Source of the DNA: Rhizophlyctis rosea
Taxonomy: Eukaryota; Chytridiomycota; Chytridiomycetes; Rhizophlyctidales; Rhizophlyctidaceae
Assembly (NCBI GenBank): GCA_027596075.1
Contig: JADGJC010000063.1
Location: 1 to 64,000 of the forward strand
Direction of reading: 5' to 3'
DNA length: 64,000 nucleotides
A program made the translations under genes and the position numbers. Under the pieces are notes generated by a model. It was not told the DNA's origin, did no database searches, and saw nothing but the letters and a program-made list of their open reading frames with translations. Shown here piece by piece: positions 2,473 to 47,927 of the stretch (position 1 is its first letter; every line of letters starts with the position of its first letter).

Positions 2473-5400
2473 ATGCCTCCTTGGAAGAGACCCAATCTAC
2501 TCGGCGCTCTCAAACGCGCCACCAGCTTCTCTCTGAAGGGAAGCAAAAAGGAAGACCCTGGACGCGACTTCCACAACACCTGGGTGCGGGCGGTTCACGG
2601 CTGTCTCCTCTGTGGGACACTACACACGCCTGATAGTTGGGTTTGGACTTGCGGTGTTTGTGAGGATTATGATTATTGCGAAAGGTCTGGGCTATCTGTC
2701 CATCATCCCAAGGTCGCTTGCTGACTGACAAACCGCGCCAGCTGCTACCGTGCTACTTTTAATGACAAACCACATCAACATGCCATGTACCATGAGTTCT
2801 ATCAAAAGGAAGTTCCTCATCAGGCCATCAAAGCCGTGGAAGGCTCGATACCGAATCTGCTCGGAGCATGCTTCAATGTATATGCTAAGCGCCCATGTCT
2901 GGGGTATCGGCCTGTTGGACCAGAGGGATGGTCCCAGGCTGAGTACAGATGGTTAACATACAATGATGTGAAGGAGAAGCTGCAAATGATCTGGACGGGA
3001 ATGGTTGGTTTGGGTTTGAAACCCTACTCCATCGATACTGACAGCACAGCTCAGCCCCAGGAGGGTGATATTGTCTGCATATGGGGTGGAGCAAGTTCGG
3101 AATGGTTTCTGTGCTACTACGCAATGCTGAGAAGCGGAACAACGGTTGTGCCAATGCACCATACCGCAAATGTAGATTATGTAGTTCATGTAGGTTTGTC
3201 GTCCGCTCCATTTGAAGCAACTCTCACTCCTTAACGAGACCCCCGTTTGCTGTTCAGATATTGAAGTTGACCAATCCCAAGTTCATAATGATGTCTTCCC
3301 ATCTCCTACTGCCGTTCCACCAAGCACTGGCACTCGCGTGTGAATCCGGTGTCAACTCCGTCCAGGCGATCATCACATACACCGATCATGTTTCCAACTA
3401 TGCACTCCGTCACGATGTGAGCACTGGAGCACCATCATACCCTCTACCCAAAACACACTCTCTCACAGACCTTCTGAATCAAGGCCAATCCCTCACACCA
3501 ATCCCCTTCCCAACCACCACCCCTCCAAACCACCCCGCAATCCTTCTCCCCACGTCTGGCACCACTGGCTTCCCCAAACTGAGCATCCTCCCTTCTTCGT
3601 TCCTTGCGCGTGCCCCAGAGCCCGAGCACCGTCTGATCATCATCTACGCCCGTGAACCCCTCCGCCAATCCATTGATGTCCTAAACCAAGGCGGCCGCAT
3701 AGGAGTCTGGAGCGGGAGTGCAGAGACAATGGAAGAAGATATCAAGATCCTCAGACCGACAGTCTTGGGGGCTACACCCGCATTCTATGGTACTCTGTAC
3801 CATCGGTTCAAAGTGGAAGTCGCGAGGGAGTTGAACAAAGCAGATGTCGATGCAACATCCACCGATGTGGAGGTTCAAGCCAAAGCTCGCAAAATCCGAT
3901 CGGACGTTTTGGATCAATGGAAACGACGCCCATTCTTCGGCCCCAGATGCAAAGTTTTGACAATCGGCGGCGCCTCCTCCAGCGAAGAACTGAAAACATG
4001 GATGTGGGACGCCCTGGGCGCCTGTGTCGTCATTGACGGATACGGGTGCACAGAAACGGGTGGCATCGCACGCATGGGGGACGTGACGCACGGGTCGAAC
4101 ATCATGCTAAGGGATGCGCCGGAGTATGGGTATACAACAGCCGATAAGCCATATCCCCGGGGCGAAATCCTGGCATCTACTAGTCGACTGATACCCGGCT
4201 ATTTCAATAACCCGACCGCAACCGAGAACGCATTTGTGAATATGGGCGGCAGACGGTACTTCCGAACGGGGGATGCGGGTGAGATGCGGGAGGGTGGAAA
4301 GATTGTTGTGATTGACCGGTTGGGAAGTCTGTTCAAGCTTGCGCAGGGGTTGTTTGTGTCGCCCGAAAGGGTGGAAGATGTGTACCGGAAGAGTGTACTT
4401 GTAGAGCAGTGTTTTGTTTGGGGGTGCGGGGAGATGAGTGGGGTCGGAGTTGTGGTTGTTGGGAGTGAGGTGTTGGTTGAGAGGGTGAGGGAGGAGCTCA
4501 AAGGCGATGCACAGGTGGATCTGAGACAAGTTGGTGAGGAGGTAGCATATAAGACGAAAGCAATGCAGCTGGTGATGGATGATTTGCGTAGGATTGCTGT
4601 CGAGGAAGAGCTTGCACCCTGGGAGATTCCGAGCATGTTGGTGCTGGAGAGTGAACCATTCACTGAGTGGAATGGGTTATTAAGCAGTATTGGGAAGATG
4701 TGTCGTCCAGCTTTGGTTCGGAAATATAGGGACAGACTCATGAAAGACATTGCCGGGACGACGGTGGCTAGGGCAGCAGATGTTGGAGATGTTTTCAAGA
4801 TGAAAGGCTCGACGGAAGGTGGAAGGGAAGAGGATGAACAACTGTGCTCTGGTCTCCGCCTATTGCTCAGTGAAAGTCTTCCCAATGTGAGGGCTTTCAG
4901 TTCAACGGATAGCCCCATCGCACTAGGAGCAGACAGCCTCGCTCTTGCCCGTCTCGCATCCAGCATACGGGAACGCTTCGGCGTGCCCATCACGCTGCCT
5001 GCAATTGCGCGTTGTTCTACATTGATGGACGTTCAGGAACTCATTTTCGGTGGGGGTAAATCCAGTACCCATCTAAACATTGCAGACATCGATTGGGAGG
5101 AAGAAGTGCGGAAAGCTTGGGAAATTGTCGTAGCAGATGACGAACCTCCCACACCGACCGACAATGCACCATCTCCACCGCGTACCAACTTCGAACCAGG
5201 CATTCTCGTCACCGGCGCATCGGGCTTCATCGGCATCCACCTCATCTCTGCTCTCCTGTCCTCACCCACATTCAGACACCACCCAACCCCGATCTACTGT
5301 CTCATTCGAGGACCCGACGCTCCCGCCCGTCTCGCCTCCGCATCATCCTACTTCTCCCTTCCACCTTCACCTCACCTGATCCCCATCGAAGCCGACATAT

Positions 5401-6278
5401 CTCAACCTCTTTTCAAACTCCCACACTCCACATACACCGCTCTACAAACCGCTACAACAAAGATATACCACCTCGCAGCGATGGTGAACGGCGTCCTGCC
5501 TTACGCGGCCCACCATCCGCATAACGTCGTTGGGACGGCGCTGGTGGTGAAGTTTGCGCTTGGGTGTTCGGAGGGGGTCAAGCTTTGTCATGTTTCGACG
5601 TTGAGTGTTTTTGGTGGGGTTGGTGAGGTTAAAAAGGAGGTGATTGATATTCCGTCTCATGGGTTGAGGGTTAATGGCGGCTATGGGCAGAGCAAGTGGG
5701 TTGCGGAACGGGTTGTGGAGAGGGCGGTGAGAGAGAGGGGGATGAGGGCGATTGTGGTGAGGGTTGGGACGGTGAGTGGGAGTAGTGGTGCGGGGAGGGG
5801 GAATGCGAGGGATTCTGGAATGTTGTTGGTAAAAGGGTTGAAAGATATTGGATGTTGGTGTGATGAGATGTTACCGGACGCGGTGATTGTTGCGCCGGTG
5901 GATTGGGTTGCCCAGGCGATTGTCAGATTGGGCGATCATTCCGGATCGGCATCGACGAGGGTGCCGCCGGTTTATCATCTGACGTCTCAACATTCCGTTT
6001 CGTTTGCGGAAATCATGGCGGCCGCGGGGATTACGCGTGTGCCGAAGCATCAGTTTGAGGATGCAATCCGTAATGTTGGGGTGGATGAAACACTATATGT
6101 CTACAAAGATGCAATACTGGCTGGCATTTTTGCAAGGAGGGGAACCATTGGTGGGGGAGGAGATAGTGCTTCAGGCGAAACGGAAACAGCTGTGACGGAG
6201 AAATGTTTGAATGCCTTAAATTTTCCTACGACAGCGCCGGTTGTAATGCCGGAGGAGTACTCAGGGGCATGCATATAA
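2473..6278 (+). CDS. Carboxylic acid reductase (adenylation-thiolation-reductase) with N-terminal ZZ zinc finger
   Basis: Three exons (2473-2684, 2742-3189, 3258-6278) join in phase to 1226 residues. Residues about 38-85 form a ZZ finger: CLLC, CGVC, then CESC across intron 1, then a His pair (HQHAMYH). The adenylation domain follows: TSGTTGFPK near 319, GYGCTETGG, YFRTGD and RLGSLFKLAQG. A thiolation domain carries the phosphopantetheine site (GADSL near 775). The C-terminal reductase has the NADPH motif TGASGFIG near 870 and YGQSK near 1030. Known A-T-R enzymes activate a carboxylic acid with ATP, load it on the carrier and release an aldehyde with NADPH. The substrate cannot be read from the sequence. 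Alpha-aminoadipate reductase shares the order A-T-R but is longer and lacks a ZZ domain. The ATG at 2473 was chosen because it begins a basic leader just before the finger; the frame is open upstream to 2329. Confidence 0.88.
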
Positions 6279-15520: not shown

Positions 15521-17369
15521 ATGGCCGACGCCCCATCTCACCCACCCCCGAACTCCAACCCACACATACCACCCGATACTCCGCCGTCGGAACCTGAGCC
15601 CACCGTTCCGGACGTTCCCGTATCCCCTGCAATGTCATACAAATCCGAGGACGAAGATGACGACGACTCCAACTATGCGGACGCTGTCATTGGGGCTGAC
15701 GGATTGCCCATGTCCAGGAAGCGGAAGCAAGTCAAGAGTGCATGCGGTAAGTTGCTCAACGACTTCGAATTTATAAGGGTAAGCGCTAAACATGGATTCC
15801 CTACCACAGTCAACTGCCAAAAAGCCTGCAAAAAGTGCGAAGAGCAACGGCCATGCCCCCGCTGTGTGAAATACAACCTGCAGGAATCTTGCAAAGATTC
15901 AAGCCGCAGAGATAGGAAGAGAGGTATGTCGCCTAAAATACCATATCACGTTGCGGGTTGCGCTATCAACTCATCTTACCTAAGACCCCTTCGTTTGCTG
16001 GGGAACAGAAAACAACGCCATGGTCGCCGACCAAGGCGTTCATTCCGCTACACCGGAATCAGACCCATCCACCGTTCCTCAACGTTCCATCCACCCATCC
16101 CCACCACCCTCCCAAGAAGACCAACTAAACACCACCATCTCACCACCAACACCCGTCGTCGACTCCACGTCCCCAACAATCGGCACCCCGCCGACAGAAT
16201 CTACCACCCCGTCCCGCCCACCAGAAGAAGGCCCCTGGTCCAAACTCCTCATCCTCTCCCAACTCTGCAGCACGATCCTCGATAGGGAGTTCATCAACGA
16301 GCCCCGACACGGAGGGGAATTCGTTCCGGTCGACCCGACGTTCGGGTACGGCTTACGGCACATGAATGGGAGTGTGTATAGTGTTCCGGGTGTTGCGAGG
16401 CGGGGGAAGGATGGGAATGAGACGGAGAGTGATGATGAGGGTGGTGATGCCGCGGGAGGAGGAGGAGGGGGAGGAGGGAAGGTACCGCCTATGTTGATGT
16501 CTGTACCGTCGGATCCTAGCACGTGGAGTTCGCCGGATCGACCGGATACGGAGTGGATGCAACGGGCGTTTGAGAGGGATGCGCCGGCGCCTGTGGGCCA
16601 TCACCTTTATGGTCATCCGGGGGCGTCGTCGTCTTCATCTTCGGCGGCCGTGGGGAGTGGGAATGCGTACGCGAGTTATGGGGATTATTATGCGGCGTTG
16701 AATTCTGGTGGTGGGAGTGGTGGTGGTGGTGGAGGGACGTGGGGAGGAGAATGGAAGGGTCCTTCGGCTGGGGCGGGGGTGGGGTATCCGCCTTTTGATG
16801 CGACGCTTGCGGCTATTGCGCAGTATTCTGGTGGTGGTGGGGGTGGTGGTGGGGGNNNNNNNNNNGTGCGCGGTCGTGGGTTTTGTGGTCGGGCTGGGGG
16901 GTGGTTTTGTGTCTGTGTGTTGTTGGGGTGTGGGGGGTTTGGGGGGTTTTGGTTGTGGGACGGATGGATGGAGGGGAGATGGGGTATTATCATCAGGGTT
17001 TGGCGGGGTTTAGTCCTCCGCAGGAGATGTTGGCTAGTAGTGCTATGGCTGCGGAGGCGTATTCGAAGATGGTTGGTGGGGGCAGGGCGGGGGCGGGTGT
17101 TGGTGTTGGTGTTGGGTTGGGTGTTGGAGGAGGGGGTGGGGAGGGGGGACCGAGTCCGAAGAAGAGGCAGAGGACTACGCTGAGTGAGTATTTGTTGCAT
17201 TTTGGGGTGTTTTGTCTTTGTCAGTTTGTACATCGGACGTGGGATACTGATAACTGTTTTTTTGTGCAATTGATCAGGAAAACCACGTAACCTCTCAACG
17301 ACGACAAGTAGTCGACGGAAAAAGCCCGTGAAGACCGAGCCGCCTTCCGAGTCAATACCGTCGATATAG
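15521..17369 (+). CDS. Zn(II)2Cys6 transcription factor, Ert1/AcuK type; interrupted by assembly gap
   Basis: Exons 15521-15746, 15810-15923 and 16009 to the gap are in phase; after the gap, exon ends at 17183 and 17278-17369 close the gene. The DNA-binding cluster is C-x2-C-x6-C-x5-C-x2-C-x8-C (ACVNCQKACKKCEEQRPC begins it), split by intron 1 after the first Cys. A basic tail follows (SSRRDRKR). Clusters with this spacing and tail are found in fungal regulators of gluconeogenesis and non-fermentable carbon use (Ert1, AcuK, AcuM), so that role is inferred. The N-terminus is Pro-rich and acidic, and the middle is Ser- and Gly-rich with Gly runs. The last exons carry a nuclear-localisation-like PKKRQR and SSRRKKPVK. 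The coding frame differs across the N run, so the product length is unknown. Confidence 0.8.
16856..16865. other. Assembly gap (10 N) in a GGT-rich repeat
   Basis: Ten N bases interrupt the regulator gene in a poly-Gly (GGT/GGG) stretch, followed by about 120 bases of G/T-rich sequence. The frame that is coding before the gap differs from the one that resumes at GYYHQGLAGF after it. The drawn size is therefore not the true size, or an intron lies inside. Confidence 0.9.
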
Positions 17370-44932: not shown

Positions 44933-46133
44933 TCAAAGCGCGACATACATAGCATACAAAATGGACGCCCCAAGAGCAGCCATGACGCCTTCAGTAGCTT
45001 CAGTACCCTTCCAAACACTCACACCCGCCCTCTTAGAGTTTTCAGCTGATCAGGCAGATCCAGTCGCCGTTGCCGTCGAAGCGGCTCCAGACTGCGTCGC
45101 ACTAGTGCGTCCCGGATATGGATCGCGCGCATCAATGTATGTTGCATTGACGGGAAGCCGTCGGCGATGCAACTTTGCTGCGGGACACCGAAGGTTGTCC
45201 AGTTACCGGCGCATTGCGAGATGGCGGATTGGACTTTGTCGGAGAAGGTTGGGACGGGCATTTGGGGGTCGCAGGTTTGTTGAACGCTGACGGTCGTAAA
45301 GTTTATTTAGGAGCAGTGAATGGAGGAACAGGAAAGAGGATGTGAGTCGAGCGCTCCCTCTTGCAGACCATCGCTAATTACGAATCTTCTTGCTTTAAAT
45401 CAGGACACCTCCATCGAGATCTCTGACTCCTGCTCATTCAATGTTGTCCACACTCCAATGATTCGATTATTCCTCGCTTTTGCATCAATTATATCTCATT
45501 TTGATTGACTCCTCTTTCAGCACCAGGAACTAGTCCGACAAAACTCACCATCCCAACAACCCACTAACAACACAACAACTACACTGATCCTTCTTCGAAG
45601 CCGATTGACAAGTCGAACTGGCATACATGGCAGCGTCAATAGGTGTGGCACAGGTATATGCTTTCCCAATGTCGCAAGGTGACTGGTCGGGCATAGTCGC
45701 GAGTGCAGGAAAATTGGGCGAGGTCACCCCGCAAATTTCCTTGATGCTTGCGGCGGTGGATTGGTAGTCGGTTGGCGATTTGCGAGGGGCAGGAGGATAT
45801 ATAGCTGTGGAGGAGGGAGGGATGCAGGATGCGGAGCGGGTATCAGCGGAAAGAGGCAACACTTCCATAAGCTCTGATCTTCACAAAGTCAGTCAGAACG
45901 CACCGGCTCAATTGAGCGGTCTGGATCTTGCAAATGCAAGCCAGTGCGGCAACGGCGTCCGTGTTTGCCGAGCATAGAGAAGAAGCCTGTGCGACATTTG
46001 TCATGCATGAGTCAAATGAAGCTTAATTGTCTCAGGTGTATGCGTCTGCGGCGAAAGTTCGTGTCGTCAGGAGCGAGGAGACGAGCAGGAGGAAGGTTTC
46101 AGTGAGGGTTTTGCGAGTTGGGGTGTAGTGCAT
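44933..46133 (-). pseudogene. CFEM-like, GPI-anchored surface protein gene with frame breaks
   Basis: The ATG at 46133 opens a signal peptide (MHYTPTRKTLTETFLLLVSS). A next exon carries SLCSANTDAVAALACICK and QTAQLS, the C-x-C spacing of a CFEM-like domain. Further exons give SIKEICGVTSPNFPAL, then KKDQCSCCVVSGLLGC across an intron (45287-45549), and ISQCAGNWTTFGVPQQSC. A Thr/Ser/Ala-rich stretch (ATQSGAASTATATGSA) and a hydrophobic GPI-type tail (GASILYAMYVAL) follow. Three defects are visible: the frame shifts after CPSQIAN near 45770, shifts again near 45160 before NATYIDARDPYPG, and has TGA at 45050-45052 before the tail. The first intron also lacks a GT donor. CFEM proteins bind haem or sit in the wall. 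This copy looks inactive, unless the base calls are wrong. Confidence 0.5.
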
Positions 46134-46982
46134 TTTGTTGCTTGGAGGATATGGTAATGCAGGAGGAAAGCGCTTGCGACGCAGAATGGGGAGAGGAATC
46201 GAAAGACGGCATTTATACCCTCATTTACTCACGATCATGGATGTGACCTACCGGTTGTCGGATGGCCACGCAACGCCAGACGGGATGGGTTCCACATGAT
46301 AAGGTGAAGGGAGGTTTGCGGCTTCTGTAGAGAAGGTTCCGGCCAGACATCTGCTTGCTAAGTTGCCAGTCTGATTATCAGCAACCCATGGAAACAAAAG
46401 TTCCCCTCTTGCCGAACTTGGCGGGCCAGAAGAGGTGGTGCTCACCAATCGGAGGTTTGAACAGTCGAACTTCTTCAAACCTCCGAACACCCCCATCGGG
46501 TGTATTGGAAAATTCCACGGATCCCAAAGGCTGGAATTTGGTTGTTGGGTAACAAGTTGAACATGAGACGCCAGGGTCCTTTCGACGGTTCAACCATTTT
46601 GTTTGTCAATAAAAAGGGTAGACTGCACTTTTAGTCTGCTCGTCCGAAAGTGGTCCTCTAAGGTAAAGTACCCCATTTGTTCGCCATCTTATGCTCAGCC
46701 AACTTGCGCATCCCTCCATACCGACAGAAGAGTAGTCAAAAGTACCTGTTGAGAATTGGTAGTACACCCAACTGTGTAACAGGTGGTCGAAAGTACGTAG
46801 AATGCGCTCACAGTTTGTTTCCTGTGTTGTACGCAGTCCAAACGTACTTGATCAAGCATGGGGAAACGAACTCTCAGTGGTACTGGAATGTCTTGCAAAG
46901 TCAGCGATCCGATCAATTGCAAAACCTCCTCGCCTGTCCGGCTGCTGTGGGGCGGAAAGAAATGAAAGAAGGGCGACCGAGC
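46134..46982. other. Intergenic between CFEM-like gene and promoter array
   Basis: About 850 bp. If the minus-strand TATA box at 46983-46990 is used, this would be the leader of a minus-strand transcript leading towards the CFEM-like gene at 46133. I see short minus-strand reading pieces with Cys residues (46695-46920) but no complete exon chain. Confidence 0.35.
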
Positions 46983-46990
46983 CTTTTATA
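46983..46990 (-). promoter_or_regulatory. TATA box, leftward
   Basis: Minus-strand TATAAAAG, in the context ATATAAAAGGC, about 95 bp left of the first CRE of the array. Its immediate context matches the right-hand box (TATAAAAGGC). It would direct transcription to lower coordinates, with a start near 46960. Confidence 0.5.
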
Positions 46991-47085: not shown

Positions 47086-47555
47086 TGACGTCAATCAAAA
47101 CGGATTGCCGTTCGCTAATTGGCTACGTCAGTCACAAGAGATTGCCGTTCGCTGATTGGCCAATTATTTTTAGGCTCTTTCTGAGCGTGATGTCAATCAT
47201 AAAAGATTGCCGCCGGTGATTGGCTGAAGAGCTCAGCGGTCTTCCATGCATGACGTCAATCAGAAGAAGTTTGCCGCTCAATGATTGGCTAGTTATCTTC
47301 AAGTCTTGCTGGGCATGTGACGTCAATCACGATAAGATTGCCGCTTGGTGATTGGCTAGAGCTTCATACGGTCATCTGAGCATAGGATCATAGCATCATG
47401 ACGTCAGTCGCAGGTGATTGCTGCGCTGTGATTGGCTGGATGTTTGAACGAACCTATGATCGACAGGTAGTTAACAACATTCTGTCAGCTGAAGCTGATT
47501 GCCGCGCGCTGATTGGTTGAAACCTTCAAGGCCCATAATGGACCTTTTTGATTGG
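47086..47555. promoter_or_regulatory. Array of CRE + inverted CCAAT modules
   Basis: Six modules each have a TGACGTCA-type site followed by GATTGCCG and then TGATTGGC. CRE starts are 47086, 47124 (TACGTCAG), 47188 (TGATGTCA), 47251, 47318 and 47399; four are perfect TGACGTCA. The paired ATTGG starts are 47118, 47155, 47219, 47284, 47351 and 47431, so the distance is 31-33 bp every time, about three helical turns. A seventh copy (ATTGG at 47512) has lost its CRE, and an eighth is only ATTGG at 47551. Distances between modules vary (38-81 bp). In fungi CRE sites bind bZIP proteins and CCAAT boxes bind the HAP complex; use of either here is inferred. Confidence 0.75.
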
Positions 47556-47588
47556 TGGAACTTTTGATGAATCGTCACATCTTGGAAG

Positions 47589-47596
47589 TATAAAAG
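47589..47596 (+). promoter_or_regulatory. TATA box, rightward
   Basis: TATAAAAG in the context GTATAAAAGGCC, about 35 bp right of the last CCAAT box of the array and 29 bp before the hairpin at 47618. The spacing fits a transcription start at or just before the hairpin. Confidence 0.6.
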
Positions 47597-47617
47597 GCCC
47601 CACGTCCTCTCAAACCA

Positions 47618-47686
47618 AGTGAGTCCCGACGGAGGGCCTTGAATGTGGAATCGATCATTTGTCCGTCGTCCGTGACACTCACTTTT
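47618..47686 (+). ncRNA. Candidate structured transcript after the array
   Basis: AGTGAGT (47618-47624) pairs with ACTCACT (47677-47683), and GACGGA (47628-47633) pairs with TCCGTC (47662-47667), giving a two-part stem with a 28-nt loop. TTTT (47683-47686) follows directly. With a TATA box 29 bp upstream, this has the layout of a TATA-driven Pol III transcript about 67 nt long. No known RNA family is recognised. An alternative is that GTGAGT at 47619 is a 5'-UTR splice donor of a Pol II transcript; no plus-strand coding gene follows within 2 kb except ECO1. Confidence 0.35.
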
Positions 47687-47927
47687 CCCGGCATACGACG
47701 TGATGATGCACTGCGTGCACGTACTCGAGCCTGAATGGACCAACTTGAGGCCAAAGACTTGATTGCAAATTCCCTCCAAAATAGGGTGTTGCTATCATAT
47801 GATCATTGTGATCAGTTTACAAGGCCGAGACTTCTTTCATACTCGTGAACAATTCAAATTTCTTTTCAGGGTATTTGCAAGTGGTATATTGGATCCCCCA
47901 CATCCCGCAACGCTCATCCAACCTCCC

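What the first reader, a model, noticed from the sequence alone, without database searches (positions are those of the whole stretch)
47086..47596. CRE-CCAAT module array with fixed three-turn spacing, flanked by divergent TATA boxes
Six modules repeat TGACGTCA-type site, GATTGCCG, then ATTGG, with the two outer motifs always 31-33 bp apart while the gaps between modules vary from 38 to 81 bp. Fixed spacing inside modules and loose spacing between them suggests selection for a bZIP and a HAP/NF-Y complex on the same DNA face. Two further copies have lost the CRE. TATAAAAGGC occurs on the minus strand at the left end and on the plus strand at the right end, so the array looks like a strong two-way promoter. 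Neither side has an obvious intact protein gene close by. I know of no described fungal promoter of this design.
Basis: partly seen in the sequence, partly recalled or inferred. Interest (0 to 1): 0.85.

Follow-up and report, generated by a model that had tools for sequence, protein, structure and literature searches.

The report
Two-way promoter array in a chytrid
A stretch of DNA in a chytrid-like fungus repeats a three-part, probably protein-binding module with very strict internal spacing between two outward-facing start signals, and similar arrays lie elsewhere in the same genome, which points to an undescribed kind of promoter rather than a chance repeat.

Summary
Seven modules (six with a CRE-type site) lie at 47086-47517, plus a lone CCAAT box. 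CRE to ATTGG is 31-33 bp in 6 of 6; neighbouring ATTGG boxes are 37-81 bp apart. The most rigid part is GATTGC to ATTGG, 14-15 bp in 6 exact pairs.

Genome searches found a second array on contig C551 (12 model hits, 8 with E below 0.03) and a weaker third on C168. Array 2 keeps the 14-15 bp pair but has almost no CRE, so GATTGC+CCAAT looks like the core and the CRE an add-on.

TATAAAAG occurs twice in the 64-kb window and twice in 16 kb around array 2; all four copies are the arrays' outward-facing flanks. 42 other loci (128.6 kb) hold one.

Best reading: a TATA-containing two-way RNA polymerase II promoter built from composite NF-Y-type elements, in a chytrid near Rhizophlyctis. Transcripts are unknown: no Rfam match to the leaders, no unusual fold. 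Binding proteins and transcription are inferred. The number of arrays is open, as the cluster scan never ran. New variant of a known kind.

The parts
46983..46990 (-). Left TATA box TATAAAAG (TATAAAAGGC 46981-46990), pointing left
   Evidence: only minus-strand TATAAAAG in the 64-kb window
47086..47123 (+). Module 1: TGACGTCAATCA, GATTGCCG (47103), TAATTGGC (47116)
   Evidence: 42.7 bits (model built from these modules, so they match by construction)
47123..47160 (+). Module 2: CTACGTCAGTCA, GATTGCCG (47140), TGATTGGC (47153)
   Evidence: 38 bits; 86% identical to module 1
47188..47224 (+). Module 3: TGATGTCAATCA, GATTGCCG (47205), TGATTGGC (47217)
   Evidence: 41.8 bits
47251..47289 (+). Module 4: TGACGTCAATCA, GTTTGCCG (47269), TGATTGGC (47282)
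   Evidence: 40.7 bits
47318..47356 (+). Module 5: TGACGTCAATCA, GATTGCCG (47336), TGATTGGC (47349)
   Evidence: 41.2 bits
47399..47436 (+). Module 6: TGACGTCAGTCG, GATTGCTG (47416), TGATTGGC (47429)
   Evidence: 41.1 bits
47480..47517 (+). Module 7, CRE degenerate: GATTGCCG (47497), TGATTGGT (47510)
   Evidence: 35.7 bits
47549..47555 (+). Lone inverted CCAAT box TGATTGG, 33 bp before the right TATA
47589..47596 (+). Right TATA box TATAAAAG (TATAAAAGGC 47589-47598), pointing right
   Evidence: only plus-strand TATAAAAG in the 64-kb window
47614..47690 (+). Presumed start region of the right transcript; begins ACCAAGTG, as does that of array 2; a 5' hairpin is possible but not clearly stronger than chance
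   Evidence: (z -1.24, 22 of 200 shuffles fold as well); inferred

Best explanation
The array is a two-way RNA polymerase II promoter of a chytrid fungus. Each module is a composite element. NF-Y (the fungal CCAAT-binding complex) would sit on TGATTGG, a second unidentified factor on GATTGCYG at a fixed 14-15 bp (about 1.4 turns) upstream, and in array 1 a CREB/ATF-type bZIP on TGACGTCA a further 17-18 bp upstream, so that bZIP and NF-Y come about three turns apart. Seven to a dozen modules in one orientation recruit the transcription machinery to a TATAAAAG box at each end and fire transcripts outward on both sides. Shown: the modules, their spacing, recurrence in other arrays, and the outward TATA boxes of arrays 1 and 2. 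Inferred: which proteins bind, that the TATA boxes are used, and what is transcribed.
For: Rigid spacing inside modules and loose spacing between them. Motif columns conserved, the rest not (0 of 20000 permutations). A second array on contig C551 (L023) with 12 model hits, 8 of them with E below 0.03, and a third on C168 (L035) with 4, of which only the best is strong, E 0.0009. Strong strand bias: GATTGC +6/-0, +12/-1, +3/-0 and ATTGG +8/-1, +11/-0, +3/-0. TATAAAAG is rare, yet outward copies stand at all four ends of arrays 1 and 2: 2 of the 2 copies in 64 kb and 2 of the 2 in 16 kb, against 0 in 14.5 kb around array 3 and 1 in 128.6 kb of 42 other loci (these 42 were fetched by motif or U2 searches, not at random). 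Over the 14.5-20 kb compared around each of the three arrays, similarity outside the modules is limited to short weak translated hits (best E 3e-4 over 28 aa), so the plan recurs independently of the neighbouring genes. The right TATA lies 33 and 43 bp after the last ATTGG in arrays 1 and 2.
Against: No transcript data. The left array-2 TATA lies about 265 bp before a plausible protein gene with no Pfam match, but array 1 has no such gene. The first ATGs of the right-hand leaders give only short frames with no similarity that I saw, the leaders have no Rfam match and fold no better than shuffles over about 125 nt (z -0.22, +0.36, +0.65; the two 5' hairpins alone -1.24 and -1.15). Array 3 lacks TATAAAAG; it has TATATAAAC on the right and none was seen on its left in L035 1340-1760. 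10 U2 snRNA loci and 16 of 20 fetched histone loci have no module, so this is not a general strong-promoter design here. The pattern GATTGG..TATAAAAG as such is hardly above its control (12 hits against 8). NF-Y and bZIP genes were not looked for.
Confidence: 0.66

Rival explanations
1. A one-way promoter or enhancer: only the right-hand TATA, towards which the modules point, is a real start; the left TATA is weak or incidental.
For: Nearly all motifs have one polarity in three arrays; in array 1 the right TATA is closer to the nearest module; array 3 shows a TATA only on the right.
Against: A left outward TATAAAAG is present in both large arrays although the motif is very rare. In array 2 a plausible protein gene begins on that side.
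Confidence: 0.15
2. Paired promoters of small non-coding RNA genes (snRNA or snoRNA-like), the RNA being the product that matters.
For: Judging by open frames, only about 240-440 bp lie between the right TATA and the next gene in each of the three cases. Arrays 1 and 2 both have ACCAAGTG.G 25 and 19 bp after the start of the TATA. A 5S rRNA gene lies beside array 3.
Against: At E<=5 Rfam gives only the 5S gene and one weak hit (17.6 bits, gathering 75) inside array 1 itself. Right leaders are not unusually stable. U2 genes use another promoter. ACCAAGTG occurs 7 times in 192.6 kb on both strands, array 1 included, so sharing it is weak evidence.
Confidence: 0.12
3. A decayed tandem repeat (minisatellite) with no function, its shared motifs being remnants of the repeat unit.
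For: Modules 1 and 2 are 86% identical and adjacent, so duplication has taken part.
Against: Identity is concentrated in three blocks while linkers are far less alike (0.41 against 0.81-0.93; one linker column is mostly gaps). Spacing inside modules is fixed and between them loose. Another contig repeats the plan with outward TATA boxes, with no overall DNA similarity between arrays in genome searches.
Confidence: 0.04
4. A non-promoter element such as a replication origin or chromatin boundary.
For: NF-Y-type arrays can open chromatin (recalled); no protein gene was seen starting close to array 1.
Against: Outward TATAAAAG at 4 of 4 ends of the two large arrays.
Confidence: 0.03

Closest known systems
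Mammalian MHC class II S-X-X2-Y enhancer (RFX, NF-Y, recruits CIITA; CREB on X2 recalled); PMC2278383, passages read
   Same: Composite of a CRE-type site (X2, recalled), an inverted CCAAT (Y) box and further boxes, with conserved order, orientation and spacing near promoters.
   Different: Order differs (CRE first, then GATTGC, then CCAAT). Modules here form arrays. No RFX DNA-binding domain was found in this genome (with a silent control). Array 2 manages with almost no CRE.
Fungal CCAAT + bZIP composites: HapX/CBC and Candida glabrata Yap5-Hap5 (YRE and CCAAT 10-14 bp apart in 7 of 9 co-regulated promoters); PMC5471220, passages read
   Same: A bZIP site and a CCAAT box at constrained distance, taken as evidence that the two factors must interact.
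   Different: Other bZIP site (TTACTAA), 10-14 bp between motifs rather than 31-33 start to start; the passages read mention no middle motif, array or divergent TATA boxes.
Mammalian ER stress element CCAAT-N9-CCACG (NF-Y + ATF6); search listing only, remainder recalled
   Same: NF-Y plus a bZIP at fixed spacing.
   Different: Different partner motif and distance.
Divergent histone H2A/H2B promoters; chytrid transgenesis paper PMC7213984 seen as listing and start of abstract only, the promoter use recalled
   Same: Two-way promoter in a chytrid; CCAAT boxes are common in animal histone promoters (recalled).
   Different: The module was not found at 16 of the 20 histone loci fetched from this genome (the other 4 not scanned), and no histone gene was seen beside the arrays.

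Membership tests
Composite NF-Y/CCAAT element with fixed partner spacing | CCAAT pentamer at a fixed distance from a second motif, beyond chance | tested here: met
Composite NF-Y/CCAAT element with fixed partner spacing | NF-Y (CBC) binds the box | not testable with these tools
   needs ChIP or gel shift; NF-Y genes were not searched
Two-way TATA promoter | Outward TATA boxes on both sides of one regulatory block | tested here: met
   for arrays 1 and 2; not met in array 3 (right side only)
Two-way TATA promoter | Transcripts start on both sides | not testable with these tools
   no expression data
MHC-type S-X-X2-Y enhancer | RFX DNA-binding domain protein and X box | tested here: inconclusive
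   no PF02257 match in the genome, but no control genome rang, and a gene split by introns can be missed
MHC-type S-X-X2-Y enhancer | Box order X, X2 (CRE), Y | tested here: not met
   order here is CRE, GATTGC, CCAAT
HapX/Yap5-CBC composite | bZIP site 10-14 bp from CCAAT | tested here: not met
   31-33 bp start to start
Known structured ncRNA gene | Rfam match downstream of a TATA box | tested here: not met
   (the 5S gene beside array 3 is on its left side, where no TATA was seen)

The most novel reading that the evidence does not exclude
A dedicated promoter class of chytrid fungi: arrays of a three-factor module (optional bZIP, an unknown GATTGC factor and NF-Y in fixed phase) between two outward TATAAAAG boxes, used for a small co-regulated set of transcript pairs, some of them non-coding. 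It would be an enhanceosome-like array in an early-diverging fungus, with GATTGC + CCAAT as core and the CRE as a replaceable input.
Probability: 0.3. Interest if true: 0.72.

Novelty: new variant of a known kind. Interest (0 to 1): 0.52.

Why it matters
Fixed-phase composite elements of NF-Y, a bZIP and a third factor are best known (recalled) from single copies in animal immune genes. A chytrid that builds whole promoters from arrays of such modules, with one array that has almost none of one input, gives a natural series for testing how much of a cis-regulatory grammar is spacing and how much is site content. It may also give two-way promoters for chytrid genetics.

Tried and rejected
U2 snRNA promoters: 10 U2 loci found; 5 of 10 have a TATAAA box 42-45 bp upstream and none carries the module at E<=5. 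Histone promoters: 16 of the 20 histone loci fetched were scanned, no module. Telomerase RNA idea: only single TTAGGG-type hexamers near the arrays, no tandem template. Transposon idea: the array, the left hairpin region, the right leader and array 2 each match only themselves by DNA similarity. RFX as reader of GATTGCC: no RFX domain found (silent control). Shared neighbouring genes between arrays: only short weak hits. Right-hand small structured RNA: folds not exceptional.

Pattern searches, with controls: GATTGG..TATAAAAG gave 12 hits against 8 for the reversed control; 2 are arrays 1 and 2, 4 of the other 10 were read upstream and show no array, 6 were not read. CRE..GATTGC gave 10 hits, control 0: 4 in array 1, 6 scattered and not read. 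Strict CRE..GATTGG gave 8 hits, control 3: 3 in array 1, and the model finds no module in the other 5 loci.

The genome scan for clustered GATTGG boxes never ran, so three arrays is a lower bound. The first protein tried for placing the organism had no relative at E<=0.001; the second had.

Full report
WHAT WAS CHECKED. The window is the first 64 kb of contig C559 of a 44.1-Mb, 634-contig genome. A long single-exon protein from the window is closest, among named hits, to Rhizophlyctis rosea (55% identity) and Borealophlyctis nickersoniae (49%), so the organism is most likely a chytrid near the Rhizophlyctidales (inference from one protein).

THE ARRAY. Reading 47086-47596 confirms seven modules and one lone CCAAT box. 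Six modules have a CRE-type site, 4 exact. CRE-to-ATTGG distance is 31-33 bp in 6 of 6. The middle motif to ATTGG is 14 or 15 bp in 7 of 7, counting the GTTTGC of module 4. CRE to the middle motif is 17-18 bp in 6 of 6. In helical terms CRE and CCAAT are about three turns apart, while the middle motif sits roughly 1.6 and 1.4 turns from them, that is, off the shared face. Spacing between modules is loose (37 to 81 bp). Mean pairwise identity among modules is 0.81 for the CRE, 0.60 for its ATCA extension, 0.93 for the middle motif, 0.93 for the CCAAT block and 0.41 for linkers; 0 of 20000 column permutations reach the difference between the three motifs and the rest. Six exact pairs at 14-15 bp compare with a shuffle mean of 0.0005.

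MORE ARRAYS. A genome-wide pattern for the middle motif and CCAAT (18 hits, against 1 for the reversed control; 4 of the 18 in array 1) led to contig C551. There a model built from the seven modules gives 12 hits at E<=5, 8 of them with E below 0.03, all in one 600-bp stretch on one strand; the other 18 loci of that scan (57 kb in all) gave none. A second pattern (26 hits, control 3) has 5 hits in array 1, 5 in array 2 and 16 elsewhere, of which two on contig C168 lie 78 bp apart. A pair within 100 bp among 15 scattered hits has a chance of about 5 in 10,000; with the correct count of 16 it is 5.4 in 10,000. The model gives 4 hits there, one strong (E 0.0009) and three weak, and none in the 14 other loci of that scan. 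Array 2 keeps GATTGC/ATTGG at 14-15 bp (6 exact pairs) but has one CRE-like site within one mismatch. Array 3 has one exact GATTGC..ATTGG pair at 15 bp, one at 17, and two CRE-like sites. The CRE therefore looks optional and the GATTGC + CCAAT pair the core.

TATA BOXES. TATAAAAG occurs twice in 64 kb on both strands, exactly at the two ends of array 1 and pointing out. It occurs twice in 16 kb around array 2, again its two ends pointing out, and not at all in 14.5 kb around array 3. In 42 other loci (128.6 kb, fetched by motif or U2 searches and so not random) it occurs once. Array 3 has TATATAAAC on the right, none was seen on its left, and a 5S rRNA gene lies about 90 bp to its left. Both left boxes of arrays 1 and 2 read TCATATAAAAG.

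WHAT IS TRANSCRIBED. Unknown. Left of array 1 the next gene seen, a small secreted Cys-rich protein, starts 850 bp away with its own TATA. Left of array 2 a multi-exon protein gene without a Pfam match appears to begin about 265 bp after the TATA. On the right, about 240-440 bp are free before the next gene in each case, judging by open frames. The leaders of arrays 1 and 2 share ACCAAGTG.G, which is weak evidence, since the 8-mer occurs 7 times in 192.6 kb. No Rfam family fits the leaders and their folds are not exceptional. The flanks of the three arrays share only short weak translated hits.

MECHANISM. The most likely reading is a two-way RNA polymerase II promoter whose modules bind NF-Y at TGATTGG, an unknown factor at GATTGCYG and, in array 1, a CREB/ATF-type bZIP. 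The polarity of the modules towards the right suggests that the right transcript is the main one. Binding proteins and transcription are inferred. An RFX protein for GATTGCC (resemblance to an X-box half site, recalled) is not supported: no RFX domain was found, though the control was silent. The module is not a general feature of strong promoters in this genome: none at 10 U2 loci or at 16 of 20 fetched histone loci.

COMPARISON. The nearest described designs are the MHC class II S-X-X2-Y enhancer, with order, orientation and spacing conserved (PMC2278383, passages), and fungal CCAAT + bZIP pairs such as Yap5-Hap5 at 10-14 bp (PMC5471220, passages). Both share the principle and neither fits in order, distance or array form. 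What searches listed (titles and starts of abstracts, open-licence papers; one search listed 10 of 76) holds no chytrid promoter of this kind. The verdict is a new variant of a known kind, with real sequence evidence and an untested function.

Noticed in passing
window 46449-46486: Perfect 13-bp inverted repeat with a 12-base loop in the presumed left transcript, matching only itself in the genome; the 71-nt stretch folds better than shuffles (z -3.42).
   Followed up: partly
L059-L068: Ten U2 snRNA-like loci above the Rfam cut-off. Five have a TATAAATA-type box 42-45 bp upstream; L066 has it 178 bp upstream; L064, L065, L067 and L068 start with a different, partly shared sequence and show no TATA box within 600 bp.
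   Followed up: partly
L035 1223-1341: A 5S rRNA gene (105.9 bits) on the minus strand lies about 90 bp left of array 3.
   Followed up: no
window 45545-46133: Small secreted Cys-rich protein gene (signal-peptide-like start MHYTPTRKTLTETFLLLVSSLL...); the two pieces scanned have no Pfam match.
   Followed up: no
L023 1440-1870: By eye, some array 2 modules have a further recurring piece (AATCAAGCA or AATCATGCA) before GATTGC, where array 1 has GCATGACGTCA-like sequence.
   Followed up: partly
window 3288-6272: Single-exon protein with AMP-binding, carrier and reductase domains, closest to a Rhizophlyctis rosea protein.
   Followed up: no
window 16856-16865: A run of ten N right after a GGT-rich tandem repeat, probably an assembly gap.
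   Followed up: no
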